Part shown: piece after piece, positions 1 to 55,142 of the stretch | How positions within the stretch are numbered: the stretch's first letter is position 1 | Layout of the letters: every line of letters starts with the position of its first letter | Virus record (IMG/VR): IMGVR_UViG_3300037606_000137 | Coordinates: 1 to 64,000 of that record | DNA: 64,000 bases | Direction: 5' to 3' (one strand) | DNA from: a virus | Program-made: the position numbers and the translations under genes | The notes under the pieces: generated by a model | Seen by the model: the letters and a program-made list of their open reading frames with translations, nothing else | Database searches by the model: none | What the model was told of the DNA's origin: nothing

Positions 1-790
1 TTATATTATAATTTAAATAACCTTGTTCTAATTGTTCGATATTTTTATAACGCCAAACATATCCACCACTATTACGAATATTGCCTTTACAACACGCAAC
101 AATATTATTTGCACCTGTTGTTTTGGTCGCTTCTGTAATAGTATTCCACTCTTTTATAAAATCACCATTTTTATTAAATTGTAAAATTGTTCTTTTATTT
201 AATTTTTTTTCTTCTGGTATAATAATTTTATCGCCTTGATTACACCAAATATATCCACCTGAAGATTTATATCTACCTGATATAACAGCACCAATATTTT
301 GTGCTTTTAAATTCAACTGGTTCGCTGCTTCTTTTATTGATCGATAATTTTTAATAAAATTACCATTTAAATCATATTGATCTACAGAATTACCAAATTC
401 TAAAAACCATGCATCTGTGTGTTTTGTTCCTAAAGCACCATCACCACCATCTGTATGATTTGTTAATGGTCCTAAATTTAAATCATATCTTCCAATATTT
501 TTAATCAATTTTATTTCTTTTAAACATGCATTTTTATTTGTCATATTCTCATATAATTTTAATATAATAACATTTAATGCTTCATTTTTTATAGCGTTAA
601 TTTTATTTATTTTGTATGATTTATGTTTATCATATAAACCATTTTTACATCGATCGTTTTTCCCTTTACCTATATAAAATGGTTCGTAACCAAATTTATA
701 ATTATTATATTTATAATTACCTGGTTTTCGTGGATCTAAATAAACATATACATAGTATTCTTCTTTTAAACTTATTTCTTTTTTTGTCAT
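1..790 (-). CDS. GIY-YIG homing endonuclease with NUMOD-type repeats (3' end outside window)
   Basis: Reads on the minus strand from an ATG at 790 without a stop to the left edge (at least 263 residues), so the C-terminus is missing. The N-terminal part carries a GIY-YIG-like core: a YVYVYLD strand, then FYIGKGKNDR near residue 40. Two consecutive modules of the form QYDLNGNFIKNYRSI...GGYIW and QFNKNGDFIKEW...GGYVW are NUMOD1-like DNA-binding repeats typical of phage homing endonucleases. It diverges from the exonuclease gene at 831. Expected to be a freestanding selfish nuclease that cuts a related phage allele; the target is not visible here. Confidence 0.8.
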   Translation of the reverse strand, partial: MTKKEISLKEEYYVYVYLDPRKPGNYKYNNYKFGYEPFYIGKGKNDRCKNGLYDKHKSYKINKINAIKNEALNVIILKLYENMTNKNACLKEIKLIKNIGRYDLNLGPLTNHTDGGDGALGTKHTDAWFLEFGNSVDQYDLNGNFIKNYRSIKEAANQLNLKAQNIGAVISGRYKSSGGYIWCNQGDKIIIPEEKKLNKRTILQFNKNGDFIKEWNTITEATKTTGANNIVACCKGNIRNSGGYVWRYKNIEQLEQGYLNYNI

Positions 791-23013: not shown

Positions 23014-23979
23014 TTAAAATCTTTTAGGTTTATTTGGGATTTTATATTTTGTTTCATATTTGATATTACTATCAGTTAATGCGTTTAAACCAATTACAAT
23101 ATCAGAAACGTGTAGATTAATTACACTATGATAATCATCAGCACGGTAACCACCAAACAAAGTAAAACTTACTGGTAATGATTTACCCATAATTAAATCC
23201 ATATGTTTTACCCAAGACCAAAAGATTTTAGAACACATTAACCAATATTTAGTATTAACTTGTCCCCCCAAATCATCATTAATATGACTATCAGCACCGT
23301 GACACCATACGACATAATCAATTTTACCCTTAAGAATTGAATTTTTTAATGTTGTATATAAATAATGTGTTAATTGTGATGTGTATTCTTTATTTACATC
23401 AGTTGGATTAAAATTAAAGCCGTTTGGTACAGCTTTATTTAAATCTGGAACAAAACCTCTACAATCTTCAATAGAGTTCCCGTAATGACCATCTAAATCC
23501 AAATAACAACCAACTTTACCAAGTTCTCTATATATTTTTACTGATGCTACAACTTGACCAGCAAACGTACAAAAACCAGAACCAGCATATGGGCGTGCAT
23601 GATGAAAGCCAGATACAGGTGCAAATACAATATCATCTGGTTTATTAATCGAATGTTTAATTGAGTGATATAATGAAGATGTTGTATATGTTAAAGATGT
23701 AACTAATTCTTCACTCCATGGAATAGATGATGCTAATTTATGTCCAGGTCTATTTAAATGAAATACTTCATTCACCCAACGTTTAGTATGTGCAATTTGA
23801 AAATCAGCCTTTGTAAAAGCTTTAAATTTAGGTTGTATACGTACATAAGCATTTGCTGCTTTCATGAGCTCAGATACGACCAATTTAGGTTTAAGTGGCG
23901 ATTTAGAATATGACAATGCTATGTTTTCTTGAAGAACTTGTTTTGTCGTATAATAAGTTATAATTTTTTTATTTCTCAT
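23014..23979 (-). CDS. Histone-deacetylase-fold (HDAC/AcuC/APAH family) deacetylase
   Basis: 321 residues. Full HDAC catalytic set is visible: H126-H127 in SGFHHARPYAG, the zinc motif D161-L-D163-G-H165 in YLDLDGHYGNS, third ligand D230 in WCHGADSH, and Y278 in LFGGYRADD. Family members are zinc-dependent hydrolases of acetyl-lysine, acetylpolyamines or acetoin-pathway substrates. No signal peptide, so cytoplasmic. First gene of a three-gene minus-strand operon. Phage substrate unknown; reversal of host acetyl-lysine marks or polyamine deacetylation are both possible. Confidence 0.88.
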   Translation of the reverse strand: MRNKKIITYYTTKQVLQENIALSYSKSPLKPKLVVSELMKAANAYVRIQPKFKAFTKADFQIAHTKRWVNEVFHLNRPGHKLASSIPWSEELVTSLTYTTSSLYHSIKHSINKPDDIVFAPVSGFHHARPYAGSGFCTFAGQVVASVKIYRELGKVGCYLDLDGHYGNSIEDCRGFVPDLNKAVPNGFNFNPTDVNKEYTSQLTHYLYTTLKNSILKGKIDYVVWCHGADSHINDDLGGQVNTKYWLMCSKIFWSWVKHMDLIMGKSLPVSFTLFGGYRADDYHSVINLHVSDIVIGLNALTDSNIKYETKYKIPNKPKRF

Positions 23980-35706: not shown

Positions 35707-36258
35707 TTATTTTTTATAATTTGTCAATCGTTTTGATCGAACATCTTGAATTTTACAATGATTTAATTTTGCATATTGTGAACGTACATTATCACGAGTT
35801 AATATCTCATTATAAATATGTACCTCATTATTTCCATCTTTATGAAAAACAACCCAATCTCCATCTAAACTAAAATGATTTTTAGCATGTGTATCAGTAT
35901 AATAAATATTTGTTGGTTCTTTAGAATCAACAACTGAAACCGGAACCAAAACCGGAACAATTACAGTATCATCATCATCATCATCAGAACTATCGTCTAA
36001 TTTTGATGCATAACCACCAACATTTAATTCGTGACTTACTGTCCAAGAATATACAAAATGATTTGTTTTTGAATTATCTCTAACATAATTAGTCGTTTCA
36101 GTAAATAATATTTCCATTATTTCACTTACTTTACTTTGTTCAGCAAAGTACCCTAAATTACGTAATTCGTTTTTCACTTCTAATGTCGTTGTTGTACCAT
36201 TAGTGTGAATTAATAAATCAAGCATCGTACAAACTGATGTATCAGTTAATTTTATCAT
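35707..36258 (-). CDS. Two-domain protein: winged-helix-like N-terminus and a shared C-terminal domain
   Basis: 183 residues. Residues 1-65 look like a winged helix (MLDLLIHTNGTTTTLEVKNELRNLGY). An Asp-rich linker with seven D follows near residue 90. The C-terminal ~60 residues (DWVVFHKDG...LTRDNVRSQYAKL...IQDVRSKRLTNYKK) are clearly related to the whole small protein at 42911-43186. Function unknown; own terminator. Confidence 0.55.
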   Translation of the reverse strand: MIKLTDTSVCTMLDLLIHTNGTTTTLEVKNELRNLGYFAEQSKVSEIMEILFTETTNYVRDNSKTNHFVYSWTVSHELNVGGYASKLDDSSDDDDDDTVIVPVLVPVSVVDSKEPTNIYYTDTHAKNHFSLDGDWVVFHKDGNNEVHIYNEILTRDNVRSQYAKLNHCKIQDVRSKRLTNYKK

Positions 36259-38503: not shown

Positions 38504-38537
38504 AAAAAAAGACTCAAATTAATTTGAGTCTTTTTTT
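38504..38537 (+). terminator. Rho-independent terminator
   Basis: AAAAAGACTCAAATT / AATTTGAGTCTTTTT stem with T-run, 5 nt after the 36367 gene. Confidence 0.92.
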
Positions 38538-38698: not shown

Positions 38699-39964
38699 TT
38701 AATCTTTAATAATAACTAAATATTTAATTGTACATTGTTTTGCTTGATATACCATAAATTCATCATTTCTTAAATCTGCACCACCATGAGCATAAACTGA
38801 ATCAAAACCGTCTTTATTAATAATATCATGTGACAATTTATAACATGATGAATCATGTTTATAAATATGTTTTTGTTCACCAACATGTACATCGTATAAC
38901 GCCAATATAGCTTCATCTGAATTTCCTTTTGCCCAGTATGAACCTCTACGTGATGTGTAACCTATTGATTTTTGACATTTTGATGCAAAATATATGGAAT
39001 TTCCAAACATTGACCCTGTATGAACAGCATTTGATGGTCGAATAATAAGACCAGATGTCATAATAGACCACCAATTTTCATTACGAGAACCATGCCAGAA
39101 CAATTCAGTGATTTTATTTTTAACGTTTGTTAAATGATTACCAAACAAAGATTGTGTTTTAATATTAATAACTTCATAGGCTTCTTTAAATTGATTTGAA
39201 TTAGAACCCATAAGTTTTTTAATTTGATCAATAATTGTTTTATCAGTAACTTCAACAATTTCTAAACCTGATGCTTTAATCATATCTGTTTGAACATCTT
39301 CGACACCATCATTATTTATATCTAAATTTGGTGTATTTAATTTAACCTGTCCGACCATTACATCTAATGTTGCTTGTTCGTCGATAATTATTTTATTTTT
39401 TGTATCGGTTAAATTATCATCTTCATTTATTAAATGTAATTTAACGTTTTTCATTTTTCTAGGAACAATCCCATAAAATTCTAATAATAAACTATTAAAT
39501 GTTTTAATATTTGTTTTACTTAAATCAAAATTAACAATACTATCTAATACTTCTTGTGCACGAACAACTTGTTTTTCAGTTACATTTTCAGCTGATACTG
39601 TATAGTTTTTTTCAACTGATCCTGTTGCCCATGCTTGTAATTTTTTTACTAAAGATACAACAGAACTAGAACGTGTAGAAATAAAATCTTTTATTTTTGT
39701 TCCTGTATCTTTTGTATCTACATTTTCAACAATAAATAAATCAGTATTATCTTTATAACCTTTTTTAGTTTTACTTTTATATGTTGCATCCCATTTACTC
39801 ATAGGATATGTTTGTGTCTGTGGATTTGCTCCCACTCTACCAAATTCCACTTTAAATGTATTATCTGTATTTTCAGTCATGTGATAAAACTTATTTGAAT
39901 TAACAAGACCAGATATTAATATTAATTTAACTATTTTACCCATTATTTTACTTTTTATTTTCAA
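38699..39964 (-). CDS. PARP-type ADP-ribosyltransferase with WGR-like domain
   Basis: 421 residues (or 414 from the in-frame ATG at 39943). Residues ~20-80 are WGR-like (FKVEFGRVGANPQT...KSKTKKGYKD; F replaces W of WGR). Residues ~115-210 fit a PARP regulatory helical domain. The catalytic domain has the complete H-Y-E triad: H291 in FWHGSRN, Y325 in SIYFAS (34 residues later, as in PARP1) and E402 in NDEFMV. Transfers ADP-ribose from NAD+, probably to host proteins or DNA ends. Minus-strand -7 box just upstream. Confidence 0.9.
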   Translation of the reverse strand: MKIKSKIMGKIVKLILISGLVNSNKFYHMTENTDNTFKVEFGRVGANPQTQTYPMSKWDATYKSKTKKGYKDNTDLFIVENVDTKDTGTKIKDFISTRSSSVVSLVKKLQAWATGSVEKNYTVSAENVTEKQVVRAQEVLDSIVNFDLSKTNIKTFNSLLLEFYGIVPRKMKNVKLHLINEDDNLTDTKNKIIIDEQATLDVMVGQVKLNTPNLDINNDGVEDVQTDMIKASGLEIVEVTDKTIIDQIKKLMGSNSNQFKEAYEVINIKTQSLFGNHLTNVKNKITELFWHGSRNENWWSIMTSGLIIRPSNAVHTGSMFGNSIYFASKCQKSIGYTSRRGSYWAKGNSDEAILALYDVHVGEQKHIYKHDSSCYKLSHDIINKDGFDSVYAHGGADLRNDEFMVYQAKQCTIKYLVIIKD

Positions 39965-44763: not shown

Positions 44764-44797
44764 TAAAAAAAGCCGAATTAATATCCAGCTTTTTTTA
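44764..44797 (-). terminator. Topoisomerase operon terminator
   Basis: AAAAAAAGC...GCTTTTTTT stem overlapping the last codons and stop of the topoisomerase C-terminal gene. Confidence 0.65.
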
Positions 44798-46685
44798 ATG
44801 ATAAATTTAATTCATCAAGTTCAGTATTCCAAATTTCTTCGGGTGTTTTTAATTTATATAATTTTATTTCTAATTTCATATCTTTTGCTTGTTTTCTATA
44901 TTCATCATATTTTTCTTTTGATAAATGATATACTGGAATATTTAATAAATAATCATAATTATCATTATATTTATCAAATTCCATATCTTCTAAATTTTTA
45001 ATAATATCAGATTTAGATTTATTATTTATTAAAACAGCTCCATCAATTACGGCTTTAATAAAACATACAAGATTAAAATATCTAATGTATTGTTTTTCTA
45101 AAATTTTAATATATGATTCTTTACGTTTTATATAATATTGCAATCTTAAATCAAACCAAGTATTTAATAATTCTTCAGCAGTATTCCATTTAACAATTTT
45201 ATTATCTAAAAATGTATTCATATTATTAATAGATATATTTGCAGTTAATTTTAATAATGATTCTAAGTTATTAATTTTTGTTCCAGCATTTAATGTAATT
45301 GTTATATGTACTAATTCATCTGTAGAATTATCTAAATATGTTTTAATAATTTTATCATCACATAATTTATCTAAAATTGAAATATATTTATCTGTTGATA
45401 CATCTACCGGTAATTCTGTTATTAAAACTTGTAATTTATTTTTAGATAAAGTAAAAATACCTTTTGAAATATATGTATTTCTTTCTGCGTCCCAATCTAA
45501 ATCACCATTCCATTTATTATATGATGGATTAATTGCATATTTAATATCAGGTCGTGTTAATTTTTTTTGTATAACTTGAATCAATGCCATTGGATCATAT
45601 TTAGGTACGTCTGTAGACCAACCTGTACCAATTCCAGATGTACCATTTACTAAAAGTGTAGGTATAATAGGTAAAAAATATTCAGGTTCTATACGATCAA
45701 CATCTTCATATAAATAATTTAAAATTTGTTCATCTTCTTTTCTAAAAATTAAACTGGTAATTGGATTTAAATATGTGTAAATATATCTAGGACTTGCTGC
45801 AGATTTTGGATCACGTCTTGATCCAAAATTACCTTTTGGTATAAACATCGAAATATTGTTACTGAATACAAAATCCTGTGCCATATTAATAATAGTTCCA
45901 TACATGTTAGATTCGCCATGAGCATAATGTGTTTGTTCTGCAACATAAGCACCAAATTGTGCAACTTTAGTTTCTGCTTTTAAATTACGTTTAAAAGCAC
46001 CAAACATGATTTTTCTTTGAGACGGTTTGAACCCGTCAATTAAATGTGGTATAGATATAATATTATCATAATTACTAAATTGAATAAATTCAGTATCAAT
46101 AAAATCATTTATATTGTTTGGTTTTCCAAATTTATCTGGTAAAATTTCACCTTTATAATTTGTCATCCATTCTTTACGTTCATTAGCTCTTGTTTTATTA
46201 AAAACCAAATCAATTTTATCACTATCACGTTTATCGATAAATTTAAATTTAATTAAATGTTTATCAATATTTTTAAACATTTCTTTAATTTCAGGTGCTG
46301 TAATTGTACCTAAACCTTTATAATATTTTATAGTAAACCCATTTAATTTATCATTAACTTTATCTCTTTTATATTTATCAATATCGTAATACTCTTTAAT
46401 AACTTTACCTTTTGTAGCTTTTACAATAGGTGTTATAAATTCATAACAAAAACCTAATTCTAACAATTCAGGCCACATTTTATGTATAAAATTAATTAAT
46501 AAACCTTTAATTGAAATACCAAAACAATTATGTGTTAACATATATCCAAGTTCATGTTTAATATGAAATGTGTGATCATTTTCAATAGTTAAATCTATGC
46601 ATTTTGTTTCTTTGTTTATGTGTGAAATACTGTCTATTTTATGTATTTCATATTGACTCAAATCTATATTTATTTTTTCTATCAT
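44778..46685 (-). CDS. Split-intein C half plus topoisomerase II TOPRIM end/breakage-reunion domain
   Basis: 635 residues. Residues 1-53 are the intein C fragment (KCIDLTIENDHTFHI, ending MLTHN); the extein starts with C54. It then continues TOPRIM (ISIKGLLINF), YYKGLGTITAPEIKEMF, the winged-helix region IPHLIDGFKPSQRKIMFGAF, AYVAEQTHYAHGES and the catalytic tyrosine in SAASPRYIYTYL. This corresponds to T4 gp60 end plus gp52 in one chain, as in eukaryotic/giant-virus topoisomerase II. Starts with a 4-nt overlap to the endonuclease gene. Confidence 0.93.
   Translation of the reverse strand: MIEKINIDLSQYEIHKIDSISHINKETKCIDLTIENDHTFHIKHELGYMLTHNCFGISIKGLLINFIHKMWPELLELGFCYEFITPIVKATKGKVIKEYYDIDKYKRDKVNDKLNGFTIKYYKGLGTITAPEIKEMFKNIDKHLIKFKFIDKRDSDKIDLVFNKTRANERKEWMTNYKGEILPDKFGKPNNINDFIDTEFIQFSNYDNIISIPHLIDGFKPSQRKIMFGAFKRNLKAETKVAQFGAYVAEQTHYAHGESNMYGTIINMAQDFVFSNNISMFIPKGNFGSRRDPKSAASPRYIYTYLNPITSLIFRKEDEQILNYLYEDVDRIEPEYFLPIIPTLLVNGTSGIGTGWSTDVPKYDPMALIQVIQKKLTRPDIKYAINPSYNKWNGDLDWDAERNTYISKGIFTLSKNKLQVLITELPVDVSTDKYISILDKLCDDKIIKTYLDNSTDELVHITITLNAGTKINNLESLLKLTANISINNMNTFLDNKIVKWNTAEELLNTWFDLRLQYYIKRKESYIKILEKQYIRYFNLVCFIKAVIDGAVLINNKSKSDIIKNLEDMEFDKYNDNYDYLLNIPVYHLSKEKYDEYRKQAKDMKLEIKLYKLKTPEEIWNTELDELNLSLKKAGY
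46527..46685 (-). mobile_element. Split intein C fragment (53 residues) in topoisomerase II
   Basis: Blocks F and G only, ending LTHN with Cys as +1 residue; the usual C-half size for a split at the endonuclease site. Confidence 0.85.
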
Positions 46686-47719
46686 AAGTATATTATGTTT
46701 TTAATTATTTTTAATTGTTTTATTATGTCTATTAATATTTTTTCTTCTGGTACATTGTTTTCCCATAAAATAATAAGTGGTCCATTTGTTGATTCTATAA
46801 TTTGTTTATTTCTAATTTCATCATCTTTCCAAATTTCGTATGCATATTTCTTTTTTAATTTATGATAATAGTCTTTTTTGTAATTTCTTGGGTCACAGTG
46901 CCAAAATTGCCCAAAAAATTCTAAACATATATTATAATCTACTAAATAAAAATCTACAATTTTTGGTCTTATTTTGTTTAAAATATGAATTGGATATTCT
47001 TCGATATATTTAATATTGTATAATTCTAATGTTTGTTTAATTTTTTGTGATACTTTACTTATTTTTGTTCCAGTTGTAACTTTTATTAATTTTGCTAAAT
47101 ATGATTCATATTTAGTTTTACCTATATCATATCCAAATTTATTTATATACCAATCTAAAGTATTAGATTTTCCTATTTTATCACATCTCTCTTTATATTT
47201 TATTGGTCCGTCAATTTCACCATATCTTATAATATAACCAGCTAAATTTGTACGCTGTGATATTGGTACATTATCACCAGATTTATTTCTGTTTGGTAAT
47301 ACTATATATTGTGCATCTTCTAATGTTATTTTTTTTATTATTGATAAATATTTTGGATTAGAACCAATGTGTTCATATGTTTTTTTATCATATGATGTAC
47401 CCAATATTTTTAAACTTAAATCATTTTTACATTCAATACTATTACAAAAAAAACCACATTTATAGTATCTAGTAAATGTATAATTTTCATTATCTAATCT
47501 ATAAATAAAAAAAGAGTTTTTATTACAATTTCCACATTTTTCTATAGGTTTATCCTCAACATAATATCTTTTAATGTAATCATCAAATATTATATTATGT
47601 TTTCTTTTAACATGACTAATTAAACCACTATTATTATTTACTATTTTATTACATATTTTACAAGTCATACACATACCAAATTGTTTATATTTATATATTA
47701 ATTTTGGTATGTGTATCAA
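46682..47719 (-). CDS. Vsr-like (EDxHD) homing endonuclease between topoisomerase halves
   Basis: 345 residues. N-terminal C2H2-like element (CKICNKIVNNNSGLISHVKRKH), a second Cys cluster (CGNCNK), middle basic modules, and a C-terminal Vsr/EDxHD-type nuclease: KIVDFYLVDYNICLEFFGQFWHCD and YEIWKDDEIRNKQI, then LIILWENNV. Overlaps both topoisomerase genes by 4 nt, so it is the nuclease of the split intein and the three are translated as one operon. This matches the fractured-gene arrangement reported from metagenomes. Confidence 0.87.
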   Translation of the reverse strand: MIHIPKLIYKYKQFGMCMTCKICNKIVNNNSGLISHVKRKHNIIFDDYIKRYYVEDKPIEKCGNCNKNSFFIYRLDNENYTFTRYYKCGFFCNSIECKNDLSLKILGTSYDKKTYEHIGSNPKYLSIIKKITLEDAQYIVLPNRNKSGDNVPISQRTNLAGYIIRYGEIDGPIKYKERCDKIGKSNTLDWYINKFGYDIGKTKYESYLAKLIKVTTGTKISKVSQKIKQTLELYNIKYIEEYPIHILNKIRPKIVDFYLVDYNICLEFFGQFWHCDPRNYKKDYYHKLKKKYAYEIWKDDEIRNKQIIESTNGPLIILWENNVPEEKILIDIIKQLKIIKNIIYL

Positions 47720-47994
47720 TTTCTTTTTATTAATACTAAATCTGTGTATAGCAATGATTCTGCATAAATTACTATAGTTTCACCATTGCGTAATACAATT
47801 AATTTGTGTTGTTTACTACATAAATATTCAGTGCCTGAAACCATAAATGACACCATATCATTTTTTATAGATGCAATTATATTTATAACTTTTTTATATT
47901 CTCCGGTGTGTGTTAATACATAATCATCATATGTAATATTTTTTATTTTCTTTTCGCCATCTTTTGTTAAAACTATAGTATTTTCTTCTAAACA
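47716..47994 (-). mobile_element. Split intein N fragment (92 residues) in topoisomerase II
   Basis: Contains blocks A and B, inserted directly after the TOPRIM D-A-D; canonical split position, unlike the terminase intein. Confidence 0.87.
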
Positions 47995-49497
47995 GTCAGC
48001 ATCAGTAAAAAATACAATTTTACCATATCTTAATTCGTTTATATCTGTATATTTTTTACCCGGTACTAATCCAATAATTTTAATAATATTTGCTATTTCA
48101 TCATTATTAATTATTTTAGATACCGGTACATCTCTTACATTTAATGGTCTTCCTTTTATTGGAAAAACACCCCAATAATCTCTACCAACAACACTCAACC
48201 CTGTTATAACTGTTCCTTTTGCACTATCACCTTCTGTAATACAAAGTGTTGATTTATAACCACTTGTAGTTCCAGCTTTATGTGCATCAACTAATTTTTC
48301 TACACGAATTGTTTTACCAGCAGATTTTTTATTCATTTTATTCAATGCTGCTTGTTCTTTCATTAAAACCCATTCTAAAATAGATTCTATGATTTCAGAT
48401 TTCATTAATAATTTATATAATTTATCAGATAAATCAACATCATCTATAATTTTAGATATTAAATTTTCTTTTGTTTGTGCATCAAATTTAGGATTAGCTA
48501 TTTTACATATTAAAAACATGTGAAATTTATTTTTAATATCGTTTGGTTTAATATTAATACCTTTTCTACCTTTAGTTAAATCTGTTATTAATCTTTTAAT
48601 AACTTTACTCATTATAAAATCAACATGTGTTCCACCTTGCCATGTAGTATTACCGTTTATAATAGAACAGTGTTCAAATGTGTCTGTACTTGATTGTGTT
48701 AAACCAATATTCCATTTATCATTAATTTCTTCTTTAAATAATTCTGCATTTGGTTCTATATGTAATGACATCCAATCTGAAATATTATTAATTTTAATTA
48801 ATTCATCATTAAAATAAACTTTAATATTTGGATTGTATGCAGCAATATCATATGCTCTTTTAATACATAATTTCATTGTATCATTACTATAATCAGCTAT
48901 TGGTAGTCTTGTAATATCTGTATTATATGTTACACATGTATATGATTTTTTACATGGTTTTATAACGGGTTTTGTTTTATTTCTTGCATTATTTGATAAT
49001 TCTTGATAATAAGATTTAGATCCATCACCACAATCAATAATAAATTTTGATGAAAATAATGCAACACAACCAGAACCAACACCATTTCTACCAGCACCAT
49101 AACGTTCTTCGGTATCATTGTAATTCGACCCAGAATTTAAACGCCCTAAAACCATTTCAGGAACATACATATTATGTTCTTTATGAATTGTAACTGGAAT
49201 ACCTTCACCATCATTCCATACTTTAATAGTCCAATCGCTTTCTATATTAATTTTAATGGTTGTAACTTTTTTCCCCCTTTGTGCATGATCTGACGCATTT
49301 GTTATAATTTCATCATATAATTTCAAAAATCCGGGTATATATGTTAATGATTGTTTTCGAATATGATTATCTTCAAAACACCACATATCTTTAGTTTGTT
49401 CTTCAATAGAACCAATCATTGTATCAGGTCTAAGTAAAATTTGTTCTTCTTGACTTAATAATTTATATTCTTCTTCAACATTTATTTTTTTTACCAT
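47716..49497 (-). CDS. Topoisomerase II ATPase/TOPRIM start plus split-intein N half
   Basis: 593 residues. GHKL ATPase: EIITNASDHAQRG (N box), VWNDGEGIPV, GRNGVGSGCVALFS; transducer QGGTHVDF; TOPRIM EGDSAKGT...DYWGVFPIKGRPLNV and FFTDAD. At C502 (codon 47992-47994) the intein begins with CLEENTIVLTKDGEKKI (block A) and GTEYLCSKQHKLIVL (block B), ending at residue 593. Equivalent to T4 gp39 plus part of gp60. Must be trans-spliced to the 44778 product. Confidence 0.93.
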   Translation of the reverse strand: MVKKINVEEEYKLLSQEEQILLRPDTMIGSIEEQTKDMWCFEDNHIRKQSLTYIPGFLKLYDEIITNASDHAQRGKKVTTIKINIESDWTIKVWNDGEGIPVTIHKEHNMYVPEMVLGRLNSGSNYNDTEERYGAGRNGVGSGCVALFSSKFIIDCGDGSKSYYQELSNNARNKTKPVIKPCKKSYTCVTYNTDITRLPIADYSNDTMKLCIKRAYDIAAYNPNIKVYFNDELIKINNISDWMSLHIEPNAELFKEEINDKWNIGLTQSSTDTFEHCSIINGNTTWQGGTHVDFIMSKVIKRLITDLTKGRKGINIKPNDIKNKFHMFLICKIANPKFDAQTKENLISKIIDDVDLSDKLYKLLMKSEIIESILEWVLMKEQAALNKMNKKSAGKTIRVEKLVDAHKAGTTSGYKSTLCITEGDSAKGTVITGLSVVGRDYWGVFPIKGRPLNVRDVPVSKIINNDEIANIIKIIGLVPGKKYTDINELRYGKIVFFTDADCLEENTIVLTKDGEKKIKNITYDDYVLTHTGEYKKVINIIASIKNDMVSFMVSGTEYLCSKQHKLIVLRNGETIVIYAESLLYTDLVLIKRN

Positions 49498-49979: not shown

Positions 49980-50056
49980 ATATGAAAGAACAAATTAAAT
50001 CATTTTTATTAAAAATTAAAATACAACTAAAATTAGTTAATTGGAATTCTATATCA
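49963..50056 (+). repeat. 94-bp direct repeat, copy 1
   Basis: Identical to 50717-50810; covers the leader and first ~25 codons (MKEQIKSFLLKIKIQ...) of the two neighbouring repeat-protein genes. Confidence 0.95.
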
Positions 50057-50518
50057 GTGCGTTATAATTTATCAGAATCATTCATTAGAGAAAATAAAGA
50101 TAGAGTTGATTGGTTTCGTATATCACAATATCAAAAGTTATCAGAAGCTTTTATAACAGAATTTAAAGATAAAGTTGATTGGAATAATATATCAGGTTAT
50201 CAAAATTTATCTGAATCTTTTATCAGAGAATTTAAAGATTTAGTTGATTGGGGTTATATATCAATGTATCAAAATTTAACGGAAAATTTCATTAGAGAAT
50301 TTAAAAATGAAGTTGATTGGTATTATATATCATGTAGTCAAAAGTTATCAGAATCATTCATTAGAGAAAATAAAGATGATGTTAATTGGGATTATATATC
50401 ATGTTTTCAAAAATTATCAGAAGAATTTATAATAGAAAATAAAGATAGAGTTTATTGGGATTATATATCAAGTAATCAAAAGTTATCCGAATCATTCATA
50501 TCAAAACATAAAAGATGA
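49982..50518 (+). CDS. 23-residue-repeat protein, C-terminally truncated
   Basis: 178 residues: leader MKEQIKSFLLKIKIQ followed by seven tandem 23-residue units (W-x-x-I-S-x-x-Q-K-L-S-E-x-F-I-x-E-x-K-D-x-V). Stops at KHKR; beyond the stop lies the remnant of the C-terminal domain retained in the neighbouring 50634 gene. Sister copy shortened by recombination within the repeats. Confidence 0.65.
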   Translation: MKEQIKSFLLKIKIQLKLVNWNSISVRYNLSESFIRENKDRVDWFRISQYQKLSEAFITEFKDKVDWNNISGYQNLSESFIREFKDLVDWGYISMYQNLTENFIREFKNEVDWYYISCSQKLSESFIRENKDDVNWDYISCFQKLSEEFIIENKDRVYWDYISSNQKLSESFISKHKR

Positions 50519-50630
50519 TATTAATTGGACTAGTTGGTTGTTGAAGTTAGAATTCATAAAGATGATCTAACTGCATTGGTTCATGATGGTGGTAAAATTA
50601 GATGTCAAAAATTTACAATTTTAAATTAAA
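50519..50630 (+). pseudogene. Orphan C-terminal domain remnant
   Basis: Aligns with the last ~35 codons of the 50634 gene (LVVEVRIHKDDLTALVHDGGKIRCQKFTILN then stop, read here in pieces), but is out of frame with the 49982 gene and lacks a start. Confidence 0.75.
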
Positions 50631-50633
50631 AGT

Positions 50634-51974
50634 ATGAGAACATTAAAAGAAATTATAAAATTATTAGATATTAAAACTAAATCAAAAGATTTAAAAAAGG
50701 TTTTATATGATAAATTAATTAAAAACAAAATAAATATGAAAGAACAAATTAAATCATTTTTATTAAAAATTAAAATACAACTAAAATTAGTTAATTGGAA
50801 TTCTATATCACAATATCAAAAATTGTCTGAAGATTTTATGAGAGAACATAAAGATTATGTTAATTGGCATTCTATATCATATTATCAAAAGTTATCAGAA
50901 TCATTTATAACAGAACATAAAGATAAAGTTAATTGGGAACGTATATCAAGTAATCAAAAGTTATCTGAATCTTTTATTACAGAACATAAAGATAGTGTTG
51001 ATTGGAATGCTATATCACAATTTCAAAATTTATCTGAATCTTTCATATCAGAACATAAAGATTATGTTTATTGGTATAATATATCTTGTTATCAAATGTT
51101 ATCTGAATCTTTTATTACAGAACATAAAGATAAAGTTAATTGGGAACGTATATCTTGTTATCAAAACTTATCAGAAGAATTCATTACAGAACATAAAGAT
51201 AAAGTTTCTTGGTATGATATATCACAATATAAAAAATTAACTGAATCATTCATTACAGAATTTAAAGATTATGTTGATTGGGAATGTATTTCACATTATA
51301 AAAAATTAACTGAATCATTCATTGAAAAACATAAAGATGAAGTTTTTTGGCCTTTTATATGTGAATATCAAAAGTTATCAGATTCATTTATAACTAAATT
51401 TCAAGATTATGTTGATTGGTATCGTATATCAAAATATCAAAATTTATCTGAAGAATTCATTACAGAACATAAAGATAAAGTTTCTTGGACATGTATTTCA
51501 AAATTTCAAAAATTATCGGAAGAATTTATAATTGAATATAAAGATTTAATTGATTGGTCTATTATATCAAAATTTCAAAAATTATCTGAATCATTCATAT
51601 CAGAACATAAATTAGAATTGAATCCTAATAGTTGGTTATATAAGGATGGTGATTATAAATTGGAAGCTATTAGAAAGACTGGTTTATATACAACTGATGA
51701 TAATTATGTTTATGGATTTAAAGGTATTAGACGGGATCGTTATAGTAAATTTAACTTTCAATTTCAATACTTAAAAGGTCAAGAATATGAATGTCATGCT
51801 GATTTCAATAATGATAATGAAAATTCATTTGGTTTGTCTGTTTGGACAAAAAAAGAAGCAACTGATTATTGTAAACAATTGGTTGTTGAAGTTAAAATAC
51901 ACAAAGATGATTTATCAGCATTAGTGCATAATGGTGGTAAAATTCGATGCCAAAAGTTTACAATTTTAAATTAA
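50634..51974 (+). CDS. 23-residue-repeat protein with intact C-terminal domain
   Basis: 446 residues from ATG 50634, or 412 from ATG 50736 (MKEQIKSFLL), which matches the sister gene and is a strong alternative. Twelve tandem 23-residue helical units, then a C-terminal ~115-residue domain (YVYGFKGIRRDRYSKFNF...YECHADF...SFGLSVWTKKEA...GGKIRCQKFTIL) I recognise as recurrent in phage repeat proteins but cannot name. Likely a helical solenoid for protein binding. No capsid tag, unlike the 26030 and 29200 relatives. Confidence 0.7.
   Translation: MRTLKEIIKLLDIKTKSKDLKKVLYDKLIKNKINMKEQIKSFLLKIKIQLKLVNWNSISQYQKLSEDFMREHKDYVNWHSISYYQKLSESFITEHKDKVNWERISSNQKLSESFITEHKDSVDWNAISQFQNLSESFISEHKDYVYWYNISCYQMLSESFITEHKDKVNWERISCYQNLSEEFITEHKDKVSWYDISQYKKLTESFITEFKDYVDWECISHYKKLTESFIEKHKDEVFWPFICEYQKLSDSFITKFQDYVDWYRISKYQNLSEEFITEHKDKVSWTCISKFQKLSEEFIIEYKDLIDWSIISKFQKLSESFISEHKLELNPNSWLYKDGDYKLEAIRKTGLYTTDDNYVYGFKGIRRDRYSKFNFQFQYLKGQEYECHADFNNDNENSFGLSVWTKKEATDYCKQLVVEVKIHKDDLSALVHNGGKIRCQKFTILN
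50717..50810 (+). repeat. 94-bp direct repeat, copy 2
   Basis: See copy 1 at 49963; offset 754 bp. Confidence 0.95.
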
Positions 51975-51982
51975 TTATTAGT

Positions 51983-53236
51983 ATGAATTTTCAATTATTT
52001 ACAAAAACAAAAATAGAAAAAATTAAAAGTAATCATTCTTATGGTATACTTATTGAAGTTGGTGCTGGATGTCCGGTTTATAATGAATTATGTCAATATC
52101 AAAACACAGCTTCAAAAATTGTAATGTATGCAGAATCACCGAATTCTTGGATATATAATCAATTTAAATATAAAAATGAAAATGTAAGAGCAATATCAGC
52201 TGAAATTTGTCGTAATTTTATAGAACAAAAAAAGAATCATCATGGAATGTTAATTAATTTTGAATTAGTTAATACAATTCAAATTGCTAATGATGATAAA
52301 ACACAAACACATGGATGGTTTGGTTTAAAATATTTAGATGAAATTAAGTATTACCATTTTACTATTTCAAATAAAACAACAGACAGAAAATATTTATGTG
52401 AAATTATTTCAAAAATTGGTTTAGATATTTTAGCATCACAAAACAATGTAGAATTGTTAGATAATGGTTATATAGATCAAATTTTAGATAATAATTTAAA
52501 TCAATTAAAAGAAGAAACATTAACTGTTATTATTAATGGTAAATTAAATATTAATAATATCAATAATACAATAACTGTATTTACTCCAGATAATAATATA
52601 ATTAGATTTAATGATTATTTACGGTCTATTCAAAATAGTTCATTAACTGTATTTAAGGGTAGTTTTAATCCAATACATAAACAACATATCAATTTAATAG
52701 AAAGTGCACGAAAAGAGCTTAAATGTGATAATACAGTACTTTGTATTTCTGTTTACAATAGAGATATAACTAAAAAAATATGTGCAGAAAATTTATTAAA
52801 GCGTATACAAATATTAAATGATTTAGGATATACTGTTTTAATAGATTGTTTAGGACAATATCATTATTCATATACGTCAATGTTAAACAATGTCAATTTT
52901 AAAAATATAGAATTAAATTACATTATGGGTTCTGATATTATAAAAAGATTTTTACTTGATGAAGATGTTTATATAAAAGAGAAATCAAATAAAAACATTA
53001 CAGATTTTAATAATAAATGGGATAAATGTAATTTTCATTATGTATGTCGTGATGGTGTGTGTGATGTTAAAAAACATATTAATATAGATTTATTAAATGT
53101 TAAACATATGGATATTCATTATAACGAAATATCATCAACACAAATTAGACAATTACTATTGAATGAAGATTATGATACATTAAAAGAATTAGTTGGTGAT
53201 GAAATATTAACATTATATAAAAAACATAAAATATGA
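51983..53236 (+). CDS. Fusion: CinA/PncC-like domain plus NMN adenylyltransferase
   Basis: 417 residues from ATG 51983 (an in-frame ATG at 51947 lies inside the preceding gene). N-terminal ~150 residues (GILIEVGAGCPVYNEL...ASKIVMYAESPNS) resemble the CinA C-terminal nicotinamide-nucleotide amidase fold. The C-terminal half has the nucleotidyltransferase GSFNPIHKQHINLI (H-x-x-H) and ISSTQIRQLL motifs of NMNAT. Makes NAD+ from NMN and ATP. With NAMPT downstream it forms a two-step NAD+ salvage route. Overlaps the next gene by 4 nt. Confidence 0.82.
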   Translation: MNFQLFTKTKIEKIKSNHSYGILIEVGAGCPVYNELCQYQNTASKIVMYAESPNSWIYNQFKYKNENVRAISAEICRNFIEQKKNHHGMLINFELVNTIQIANDDKTQTHGWFGLKYLDEIKYYHFTISNKTTDRKYLCEIISKIGLDILASQNNVELLDNGYIDQILDNNLNQLKEETLTVIINGKLNINNINNTITVFTPDNNIIRFNDYLRSIQNSSLTVFKGSFNPIHKQHINLIESARKELKCDNTVLCISVYNRDITKKICAENLLKRIQILNDLGYTVLIDCLGQYHYSYTSMLNNVNFKNIELNYIMGSDIIKRFLLDEDVYIKEKSNKNITDFNNKWDKCNFHYVCRDGVCDVKKHINIDLLNVKHMDIHYNEISSTQIRQLLLNEDYDTLKELVGDEILTLYKKHKI

Positions 53237-53690: not shown

Positions 53691-55142
53691 ATGAAACATT
53701 TTCAAAGCATGTGGAATATCATGCTCGCAACAGATAGCTATAAAGCTACACATCACGGTATGTTACCAAAAGGATTAACATATATGGAATCTTATGGTGA
53801 ATCAAGAGGTGGAGACTATCCATTTACGTTATTTTTTGGTATGCAATATTATTTAAAATCGTATTTAGTTGGTCAACAAGTCACAGAACAAAAAATTCAA
53901 GATGCTGTTAAATTTTATAATGCACATTTTGGTGTAGATAATATGTTTAATGAAGATGGTTGGAGATATATTCTTGATAAATACGATGGAAATTTACCTT
54001 TAAAAATAGAATCAGTAAAAGAAGGATCTATTGTACCAACAAAAAATATGTTATATAAAATTTCATCTACAGATGAAAAATGTGCATGGTTAGTAAATTG
54101 GGTAGAAACATTATTAATGAAATTATGGTACCCAATTACAGTTGCTACAAATTCATTAGCTGGTATGGAAATTGTCAACATACATGCAGAAAAATCAGGA
54201 ACTAAGTCAGGTAATGAATTTAAGTTAGTTGATTTTGGTTATAGAGGTGTTGCAAGTGAAGAACAAGCATGGCTTGGTGGTGCAGCAAATTTATTATCAT
54301 TTAAAGCTACAGATACCGTTGCTGGTATTAGAATGTTGATGGAATATTATGATGCACCAATGTGCGGATATTCAATTCCTGCAACAGAACATATGGTTAT
54401 GACAATTAGAGGTCGTGATTTTGAAAGAGAAACATATAAACAAATTTTATCTGATCCTAAATACCGTAGTGGTAAATTAGCATTAGTTTCTGATACATAT
54501 GATATTTATGCAGTATGTCGAATGTTATCAGAAGATACTGAATTAAAAGAATTAATTTTAAGTAGAAATGGACAATTGATTATACGTCCTGATTCAGGTG
54601 ATCCACAAGATGTTTTACTTAAATGTTTAGAAATTTTAGGTGATGGTTTTGGTTATACCGTAAATGAAAAAGGATATAAAGTATTAAATCCAAAAATTGG
54701 TTTATTACAAGGTGATGGTATTACAATATATACTATGCATGAAATAATGGAATATTTAGAAAGTGCAACAAATATGTGGTCATTTGATAATATAGCATTT
54801 GGTTCAGGTGGTGGATTATTGCAACACTTTAATAGAGATTCATTAAAATTTGCAATTAAAGCATGTTATGCAGTAACTGATGGTGTTGCTATTGATGTAT
54901 ATAAGGATCCAATTACAGGATCAGGTAAAACATCTAAGAAAGGACAATTATATACTGTATGGAATGATAAAACCGGATATGAAACAATTACAAAAGCAGA
55001 ATTTGAAACTAATAATAGTACAAATATGTTACAAGCTGTATTTTTAAATGGTGTTTTATATAACGAACAAACATATCAAGATATTATTGATACAAAAAAC
55101 AATGAAATAAAAAAATTAGAGAATTTAGAAGATGACAAATAA
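53691..55142 (+). CDS. nadV: Nicotinamide phosphoribosyltransferase (NAMPT/NadV)
   Basis: 483 residues (human NAMPT 491). Conserved blocks in order: TDSYKATHHGMLP, FGYRGVASEEQA, FKATDTVAG, IPATEHMVM (catalytic H234), LIIRPDSGDPQDV, LQGDGITIYTMHE and IAFGSGGGLLQ. Converts nicotinamide and PRPP to NMN, which the adjacent NMNAT makes into NAD+. Overlaps the following gene by 11 nt. Confidence 0.96.
   Translation: MKHFQSMWNIMLATDSYKATHHGMLPKGLTYMESYGESRGGDYPFTLFFGMQYYLKSYLVGQQVTEQKIQDAVKFYNAHFGVDNMFNEDGWRYILDKYDGNLPLKIESVKEGSIVPTKNMLYKISSTDEKCAWLVNWVETLLMKLWYPITVATNSLAGMEIVNIHAEKSGTKSGNEFKLVDFGYRGVASEEQAWLGGAANLLSFKATDTVAGIRMLMEYYDAPMCGYSIPATEHMVMTIRGRDFERETYKQILSDPKYRSGKLALVSDTYDIYAVCRMLSEDTELKELILSRNGQLIIRPDSGDPQDVLLKCLEILGDGFGYTVNEKGYKVLNPKIGLLQGDGITIYTMHEIMEYLESATNMWSFDNIAFGSGGGLLQHFNRDSLKFAIKACYAVTDGVAIDVYKDPITGSGKTSKKGQLYTVWNDKTGYETITKAEFETNNSTNMLQAVFLNGVLYNEQTYQDIIDTKNNEIKKLENLEDDK

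What the first reader, a model, noticed from the sequence alone, without database searches (positions are those of the whole stretch)
38699..39964. PARP1-style ADP-ribosyltransferase with WGR-like domain and intact H-Y-E triad
WGR-like, helical regulatory and catalytic domains occur in PARP order with H291, Y325 and E402. PARPs are rare in phages. It may modify host proteins or respond to DNA ends; WGR domains bind DNA breaks in eukaryotic PARPs.
Basis: partly seen in the sequence, partly recalled or inferred. Interest (0 to 1): 0.7.

Follow-up and report, generated by a model that had tools for sequence, protein, structure and literature searches.

The report
Phage PARP enzyme likely sensing DNA breaks
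This large bacterial virus carries a compact relative of the human DNA-damage enzyme PARP, and in related viruses the same gene often sits beside genes for removing its chemical mark and for sealing broken DNA, which suggests that phages run a small version of our DNA-break signalling.

Summary
The 38699-39964 (-) ORF, best started at the ATG at 39943, encodes 414 residues folding as WGR, helical regulatory domain and PARP catalytic domain in PARP1/2/3 order (model pLDDT 90.2; VIA Z 27.0 to human PARP1 on a DNA break, whole length). H291/Y325/E402 and the WGR glycine-arginine are invariant in 59 of 59 viral relatives. It is a new member of a known kind: phage PARPs are in print (Cellulophaga phi4:1, XacN1), function called unknown. 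"Rare" needs qualifying: 15 of 50,697 isolate records, but 115 IMG/VR stretches. The new result is context. In 23 of 66 relative groups a macrodomain gene, mostly a homologue of human TARG1, lies within 1 kb of PARP; 16 have a DNA ligase within 2.5 kb; 10 have ligase-macrodomain-PARP in that order; random placement does not give this. This window's PARP lacks that neighbour; its record instead has an ADP-ribosylglycohydrolase, an NAD-dependent ligase and NAD+ synthesis genes, unlinked. Best reading: a DNA-end-activated ADP-ribosyltransferase acting in phage replication or repair. Activity, DNA stimulation and chain length are untested.

The parts
38699..39943 (-).
39734..39934 (-). WGR domain (about residues 4-70; F34-G35-R36, N17-K18, K58, K61, Y63)
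   Evidence: Pfam WGR 25.4 bits; strands within 4-47 and helix 48-60; invariant columns
39329..39667 (-). helical regulatory domain (about residues 93-205)
   Evidence: helices 93-113, 123-137, 143-159, 178-203; model residues 88-414 align with PARP1 662-1007
38702..39283 (-). ART/PARP catalytic domain (about residues 221-414)
   Evidence: Pfam PARP 76.1 bits, fold
   Evidence: invariant 59 of 59
38990..38992 (-). catalytic Tyr (Y318; Y325)
   Evidence: invariant 59 of 59
38759..38761 (-). catalytic Glu (E395; E402)
   Evidence: invariant 59 of 59
38504..38537 (.). hairpin terminator usable from both sides, between PARP and the converging 710-aa gene
   Evidence: 2 terminator-like sites found (one hairpin, both strands), 0.2 expected in shuffles
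53691..55142 (+). NAMPT (nicotinamide phosphoribosyltransferase): would recycle the nicotinamide that a PARP releases; functional link inferred only
   Evidence: Pfam NAMPT_N and NAPRTase; NF006629 514.9 bits, cut-off 405
51947..53236 (+). probable NMN/NaMN adenylyltransferase (C-terminal half)
   Evidence: Pfam CTP_transf_like 31 bits over cut-off 21; TIGR00482 40.1 bits, under its cut-off 112

Best explanation
The gene makes a DNA-end-activated ADP-ribosyltransferase that works like PARP1/2/3. The WGR domain would bind nicks or double-strand ends of replicating phage DNA, the helical domain would loosen, and the catalytic domain would then use NAD+ to put ADP-ribose on itself and on proteins (or DNA ends) at the break, to organise repair or ligation by phage enzymes. 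The mark would be removed again: in one clade of relatives by a TARG1-type macrodomain encoded next door, in this phage probably by the ADP-ribosylglycohydrolase elsewhere in the genome. Shown here: domains, fold, intact active site, invariant WGR residues, and in relatives significant linkage to eraser and DNA ligase genes. Inferred: activity, DNA dependence, substrates, role in repair, and the part played by the eraser and NAD+ genes of this genome.
For: Fold: pLDDT 90.2, pTM 0.85; Foldseek best hits are human PARP1 and PARP2/HPF1 on double-strand breaks; VIA Z 27.0, rmsd 3.9, 364 residues, model 1..414, to PARP1 on a break. Profile of 59 viral PARPs aligns to human PARP2 from WGR to catalytic domain, E 8.9e-45. 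Triad and WGR G-R, N17, K18, K58, K61, Y63 identical in 59 of 59; these fall in the three WGR stretches that PMC5966428 ties to DNA-dependent activity (passages read). Neighbours in relatives: macrodomain within 1 kb in 23 of 66 groups (21 upstream, all same strand), ligase within 2.5 kb in 16, both in 10, always ligase-macrodomain-PARP. Against 20,000 random placements: macrodomain within 2 kb 12 of 22 records (mean 0.76, none as high); any ligase within 10 kb 15 of 37 (mean 4.38, none as high), within 2 kb 6 of 37 (mean 1.19, 21 as high). The macrodomain matches human TARG1 (L067, E 6.4e-26). Own record: ARH 82408-83331, LigA 78690-80621, NadE-like 67763-68677, NAMPT, two NMNAT-like genes. 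Bacterial PARPs of this design are DNA-dependent in vitro (HaPARP, CdPARP: PMC5966428 passages).
Against: No macrodomain in this record, and its ligase and ARH lie 39 and 42 kb from PARP: the operon is seen in relatives only, in a separate clade. NAMPT is no commoner in PARP phages (12 of 41) than in control phages (10 of 29; p 0.79), so the 'NAD+ cycle' may be coincidence. ARH excess is only suggestive (8 of 42 vs 1 of 29, p 0.07). Replication genes cluster in phages, so some ligase linkage could be mere neighbourhood. Pfam's regulatory-domain model did not hit. An H-Y-E triad does not settle poly- versus mono-transfer.
Confidence: 0.5

Rival explanations
1. Host take-over: the enzyme ADP-ribosylates host proteins (RNA polymerase, translation or metabolic enzymes) as T4 Alt and Mod do, with WGR serving to bring it to DNA-bound targets.
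For: ADP-ribosyltransferases are common in large phages and the published view is host modification (PMC9503650 section 3.7.1; PMC7824862 passage on XacN1 PARP).
Against: H-Y-E triad and WGR-HD design, not the R-S-E design of Alt/Mod; of the ORFs between 33 and 50 kb that were scanned none matched a capsid, portal or terminase family, so no sign of head packaging, though most matched nothing; TARG1-type eraser and ligase neighbours in relatives.
Confidence: 0.22
2. Counter-defence at DNA ends: the enzyme senses ends made by host restriction, RecBCD or CRISPR nucleases and modifies the nuclease or the DNA terminus, shielding the phage genome.
For: Same sensor logic; RecB-like and ERCC4-like nuclease genes and ligases recur near PARP in relatives (nucleases named by eye from sequence); a phage ADP-ribosyltransferase that disarms a host system is known (AcrIF11, PMC12421852, search listing only).
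Against: Nothing ties it to a particular defence; the paired eraser would undo the shield.
Confidence: 0.17
3. Toxin-antitoxin or superinfection-exclusion module: PARP is a toxin kept in check by the macrodomain, as DarT by DarG.
For: Macrodomain directly upstream within 100 bases in 18 of 66 groups, also in Clostridia contigs, resembling a writer-eraser pair such as DarTG.
Against: This phage has no macrodomain and none of its clade of 14 was among the macrodomain-paired loci; a third gene, the ligase, joins the operon; DarT is a different ART family (recalled).
Confidence: 0.1

Closest known systems
Human PARP1/PARP2/PARP3 (WGR-HD-ART, DNA-dependent PARPs)
   Same: Domain order, fold over the whole length (Z 27.0 to PARP1 on DNA), H-Y-E triad, WGR G-R
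   Different: About 20% identity; no zinc fingers, BRCT or other N-terminal extension; no data on activity
Bacterial PARPs (Herpetosiphon HaPARP, C. difficile CdPARP, Saprospiraceae/Cytophagales homologues)
   Same: Same three domains; up to 47-48% identity to Bacteroidota homologues
   Different: Window protein lies in a virus-only clade of 14 (support 97)
Cellulophaga phage phi4:1 / phi17:2 PARP, Xanthomonas phage XacN1 PARP (phrog_23333)
   Same: Phage WGR-PARP of the same length; phi4:1 PARP is two genes from a DNA ligase
   Different: 23-30% identity
DarTG and TARG1
   Same: Writer and macrodomain eraser side by side in one clade of relatives; macrodomain homologous to TARG1
   Different: Writer is a WGR-PARP, not DarT; a DNA ligase is often the third gene; absent from this window
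Aeromonas phage Aeh1 pART
   Same: PARP-like catalytic domain in a phage
   Different: Reported to carry domains distantly like coat proteins, not those of vertebrate PARPs (PMC1266365 passages)

Membership tests
DNA-dependent PARP (PARP1/2/3 type) | ART catalytic domain with H-Y-E triad | tested here: met
   Pfam 76.1 bits; H284/Y318/E395 invariant; fold
DNA-dependent PARP (PARP1/2/3 type) | WGR domain | tested here: met
   Pfam WGR 25.4 bits over cut-off 22; fold match from residue 1; first letter F, not W
DNA-dependent PARP (PARP1/2/3 type) | helical regulatory domain between WGR and ART | tested here: met
   Model residues 88-414 align with PARP1 662-1007, profile alignment; Pfam model itself not hit
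DNA-dependent PARP (PARP1/2/3 type) | NAD+-dependent transfer, stimulated by DNA ends | not testable with these tools
   needs the protein
DNA-dependent PARP (PARP1/2/3 type) | poly(ADP-ribose) chains | not testable with these tools
   triad alone does not decide it
T4 Alt/Mod ADP-ribosyltransferases | R-S-E active site | tested here: not met
   H-Y-E
DarTG-like writer-eraser pair | macrodomain gene next to the transferase | tested here: not met
   no macrodomain match in the 110,380-base record; met in 23 of 66 groups of relatives
Phage NAD+ salvage (NAMPT plus NMN adenylyltransferase) | NAMPT and adenylyltransferase in one genome | tested here: inconclusive
   NAMPT over cut-off; the two adenylyltransferase-like genes are under their equivalog cut-offs

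The most novel reading that the evidence does not exclude
Large phages carry a self-contained DNA-break ADP-ribosylation circuit of the kind thought typical of eukaryotes: a WGR-PARP that marks breaks, a TARG1-type (or ARH-type) enzyme that wipes the mark, and a DNA ligase that closes the break, in one operon in some lineages and dispersed, with NAD+ regeneration genes, in others such as this one.
Probability: 0.38. Interest if true: 0.8.

Novelty: new member of a known kind. Interest (0 to 1): 0.55.

Why it matters
The function of phage PARPs is stated as unknown in a 2023 review (PMC10789625 passage). A conserved ligase-TARG1-PARP gene order gives a concrete, cheap hypothesis: phages use reversible ADP-ribosylation at DNA breaks. 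If true, a DNA-damage signalling logic studied mainly in animals works in a bacterial virus in three small genes, and it offers minimal enzymes for dissecting how PARP, eraser and ligase cooperate. It would also question the published suggestion that phage macrodomains mainly act on small signalling molecules (PMC9503650, section 3.7.2 and part 1 of 3.7.4 read).

Tried and rejected
NAD+ cycle as a linked trait: NAMPT is no commoner in PARP phages (12 of 41) than in 29 contigs of at least 100 kb picked through an unrelated gene, Thg1 (10 of 29); enrichment rejected. ARH: 10 of 50 records (8 of 42 after dropping near copies) against 1 of 29; p 0.07, kept as suggestive only. Microbial PARG: 1 of 50. 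Macrodomain presence: 20 of 50 over cut-off against 2 of 29 (p 0.0015), but published base rates are higher (40% of medium, 56% of jumbo phages, PMC9503650), so the claim rests on adjacency, not presence.

WGR on the ligases: five PARP-phage ligases have a conserved N-terminus that looked WGR-like by eye; Pfam gave no WGR hit at E up to 1 and hhalign gave probability 40: not claimed. Terminase- and gyrase-based searches for control phages gave too few long contigs. Records dropped by hand as near copies: G002, G012, G025, G031, W01, W06, W08, W09 (50 became 42); one search used an independent 90% identity grouping (80 loci, 66 groups). The tree used 59 sequences from the window and 58 of 80 viral loci, three isolate phages, and 54 of 59 bacterial loci (three partial, two with internal stops left out). 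The control set took 29 of 33 contigs of at least 100 kb: L265, L266, L270 (near copies of L263) and L303 (a PARP record) were dropped. The control contigs were not themselves screened for PARP apart from L303. The 115 viral relatives were capped at 80 loci; 40 of those lie in contigs of at least 100 kb. In the VIA listing only the two PARP1-on-DNA chains cover the WGR part.

Full report
What is there. The reported frame exists, on the minus strand, with 421 codons from a TTG and 414 from an ATG at 39943. The ATG start matches the N-termini of relatives and is preferred. The window is part of a 110,380-base viral record. Pfam finds WGR at residues 22-72 and PARP at 248-419 of the TTG-started frame, both over cut-off; phrog_23333 matches the whole length at 4.4e-53.

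Fold and active site. AlphaFold2 with an alignment of 59 viral sequences gives pLDDT 90.2 and pTM 0.85: a beta WGR module (residues 4-60), long helices 93-203, and the ART fold from 227. Foldseek's best solved matches are human PARP1 and PARP2/HPF1 bound to double-strand breaks. VIA-align gives Z 27.0, rmsd 3.9 over 364 residues spanning model 1-414 for PARP1 on a break, and aligns model 88-414 with PARP1 662-1007. A profile of the 59 sequences aligns with human PARP2 from WGR into the catalytic domain at E 8.9e-45. PMC5966428 (passages) places the residues most tied to DNA-dependent activity of bacterial PARPs in three WGR stretches that correspond to these (correspondence judged by motif, not by a joint alignment), and notes that the first letter of the motif is mostly Y, then W or F, as found here.

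Distribution and kinship. Isolate phages with a relative: 15 of 50,697 records (Cellulophaga, Klebsiella, Xanthomonas, Stenotrophomonas, two metagenomic). IMG/VR: 115 stretches encode a relative, 80 loci kept. One GTDB scan gave 59 loci, the nearest in Saprospiraceae and Cytophagales. In the tree the window protein sits with two viral relatives (59-62% identity) in a virus-only clade of 14 (support 97); Bacteroidota bacterial PARPs form another clade, and a third clade mixes phages and Clostridia.

The neighbours in relatives. Clustering of genes around PARP (65 viral and isolate-phage loci plus the window) showed a family of about 150 residues just upstream of PARP and DNA ligases close by. 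The small protein is a macrodomain: of five tested, Pfam Macro is over cut-off for two and a little under for three, and L067's copy matches human TARG1 (OARD1, C6orf130; 4j5q) at 6.4e-26, L075's at 2.5e-10. In 15 of 21 cluster members the lysine aligned with TARG1 Lys84 is kept, in 7 also the aspartate aligned with Asp125 (that these two are TARG1's catalytic residues is recalled, not from a call). After grouping 80 viral loci at 90% PARP identity into 66 groups, 23 have a macrodomain within 1 kb (21 upstream, 2 downstream, all same strand; 18 of the upstream ones within 100 bases), 16 have a ligase within 2.5 kb, and 10 have both, always in the order ligase, macrodomain, PARP; the ligase is ATP-dependent in 8 and NAD-dependent in 2 (flanks of many loci are cut short, so these are lower bounds). 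In L067 the macrodomain stop lies 10 bases before the PARP ATG with a GGAGG between. Over 42 records, PARP placed at random gives a macrodomain within 2 kb in 0.76 records on average against 12 of 22 seen (0 of 20,000 as high), and a ligase within 10 kb in 4.38 against 15 of 37 (0 of 20,000), within 2 kb 1.19 against 6 (21 of 20,000). Pairs also occur in 5 of 56 bacterial loci examined (four with gaps under 50 bases, one at 910; all Clostridia). In the 595-kb phage LR756511 PARP lies 384 bases from a ligase and 4.2 kb from an ARH gene. The linkage is not independent in every record: the macrodomain-paired PARPs fall mostly in one clade (23 of 27 rows there; 4 changes on the tree).

The window's own genome. 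No macrodomain and no PARG were found. An ADP-ribosylglycohydrolase (82408-83331, Pfam 95.2 bits, cut-off 26.2) lies 1.8 kb from an NAD-dependent DNA ligase (78690-80621; adenylation and OB domains over cut-off). NAD+ genes: NAMPT (53691-55142), an NAD synthetase-like gene (67763-68677, TIGR00552 98.5 bits, cut-off 63.65) and two adenylyltransferase-like genes under their equivalog cut-offs. These are presence facts; PARP itself stands alone between a convergent 710-residue gene and an HNH endonuclease gene.

Controls. Using 29 contigs of at least 100 kb chosen through Thg1: NAMPT 10 of 29 against 12 of 41 PARP records, ARH 1 of 29 against 8 of 42, Macro 2 of 29 over cut-off against 20 of 50. 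NAD+ salvage is therefore not a PARP-linked trait, ARH is suggestive only, and macrodomain linkage is real through adjacency.

Literature. Phage PARPs are not new: Aeh1 (2005, PMC1266365, passages; with coat-like domains), Cellulophaga phi4:1 (PMC4245714 section 3.7, passage), XacN1 (PMC7824862, passage), and PART named among the most frequent viral ART families (PMC9503650, sections 13, 27, 28, 38 and part 1 of 30 read). PMC10789625 (passage) calls their function unknown. In these passages, and in the listings of eight searches of the held library, I saw no description of a PARP-macrodomain-ligase gene order; supplements and most subscription papers were not available, so it may be in print.

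Mechanism and judgement. Most likely a PARP1/2/3-like enzyme switched on by DNA ends that acts at breaks or nicks of phage DNA, with reversible marking and ligation as partners. That it is a catalytically competent ADP-ribosyltransferase I hold at about 0.8, DNA-dependent at about 0.7, used in replication or repair at about 0.5. The protein is a new member of a known kind; the gene order in its relatives is what makes it worth an experiment.

Noticed in passing
window 35707-36258 (-): ORF with a winged-helix-like start; its family recurs around PARP in 11 of 66 loci and directly beside it in some (L034, L056, L062). No Pfam or PHROG hit. Possible clade-specific partner.
   Followed up: partly
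L012:11696-14061 (record 91696-94061, -): A GIY-YIG-like ORF and an NrdB-like ORF end in the same stretch of about 25 residues, as if a homing element sits in nrdB.
   Followed up: no
window 44778-49497 (-): Topoisomerase II/gyrase-like subunits with a homing-endonuclease-like ORF (46682-47719) between them.
   Followed up: no
window 23014-23979 (-): Histone-deacetylase-fold protein (Pfam 64.2 bits), possibly an acetylpolyamine or protein deacetylase.
   Followed up: no
window 49982-51974 and L013:12803-13891: Proteins made of many short repeats around 'LSESFI.EHKD.V.W..IS'.
   Followed up: no
L013:9950-10579 (record 105950-106579): Secreted protein that by eye ends like a Bacteroidota type IX secretion sorting domain; with the kinship of the PARP it points to a Bacteroidota host.
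   Followed up: no
L008, L034, L068, L087, L091 ligase genes: Conserved N-terminal stretch of about 90 residues on phage ATP-dependent ligases, weakly like WGR (hhalign probability 40; no Pfam hit).
   Followed up: partly
L348: PARP with an ATP-dependent ligase 588 bases away on a contig filed as a Nanoarchaeia MAG; the PARP groups with phage and Clostridia sequences, so it may be a misbinned phage.
   Followed up: no
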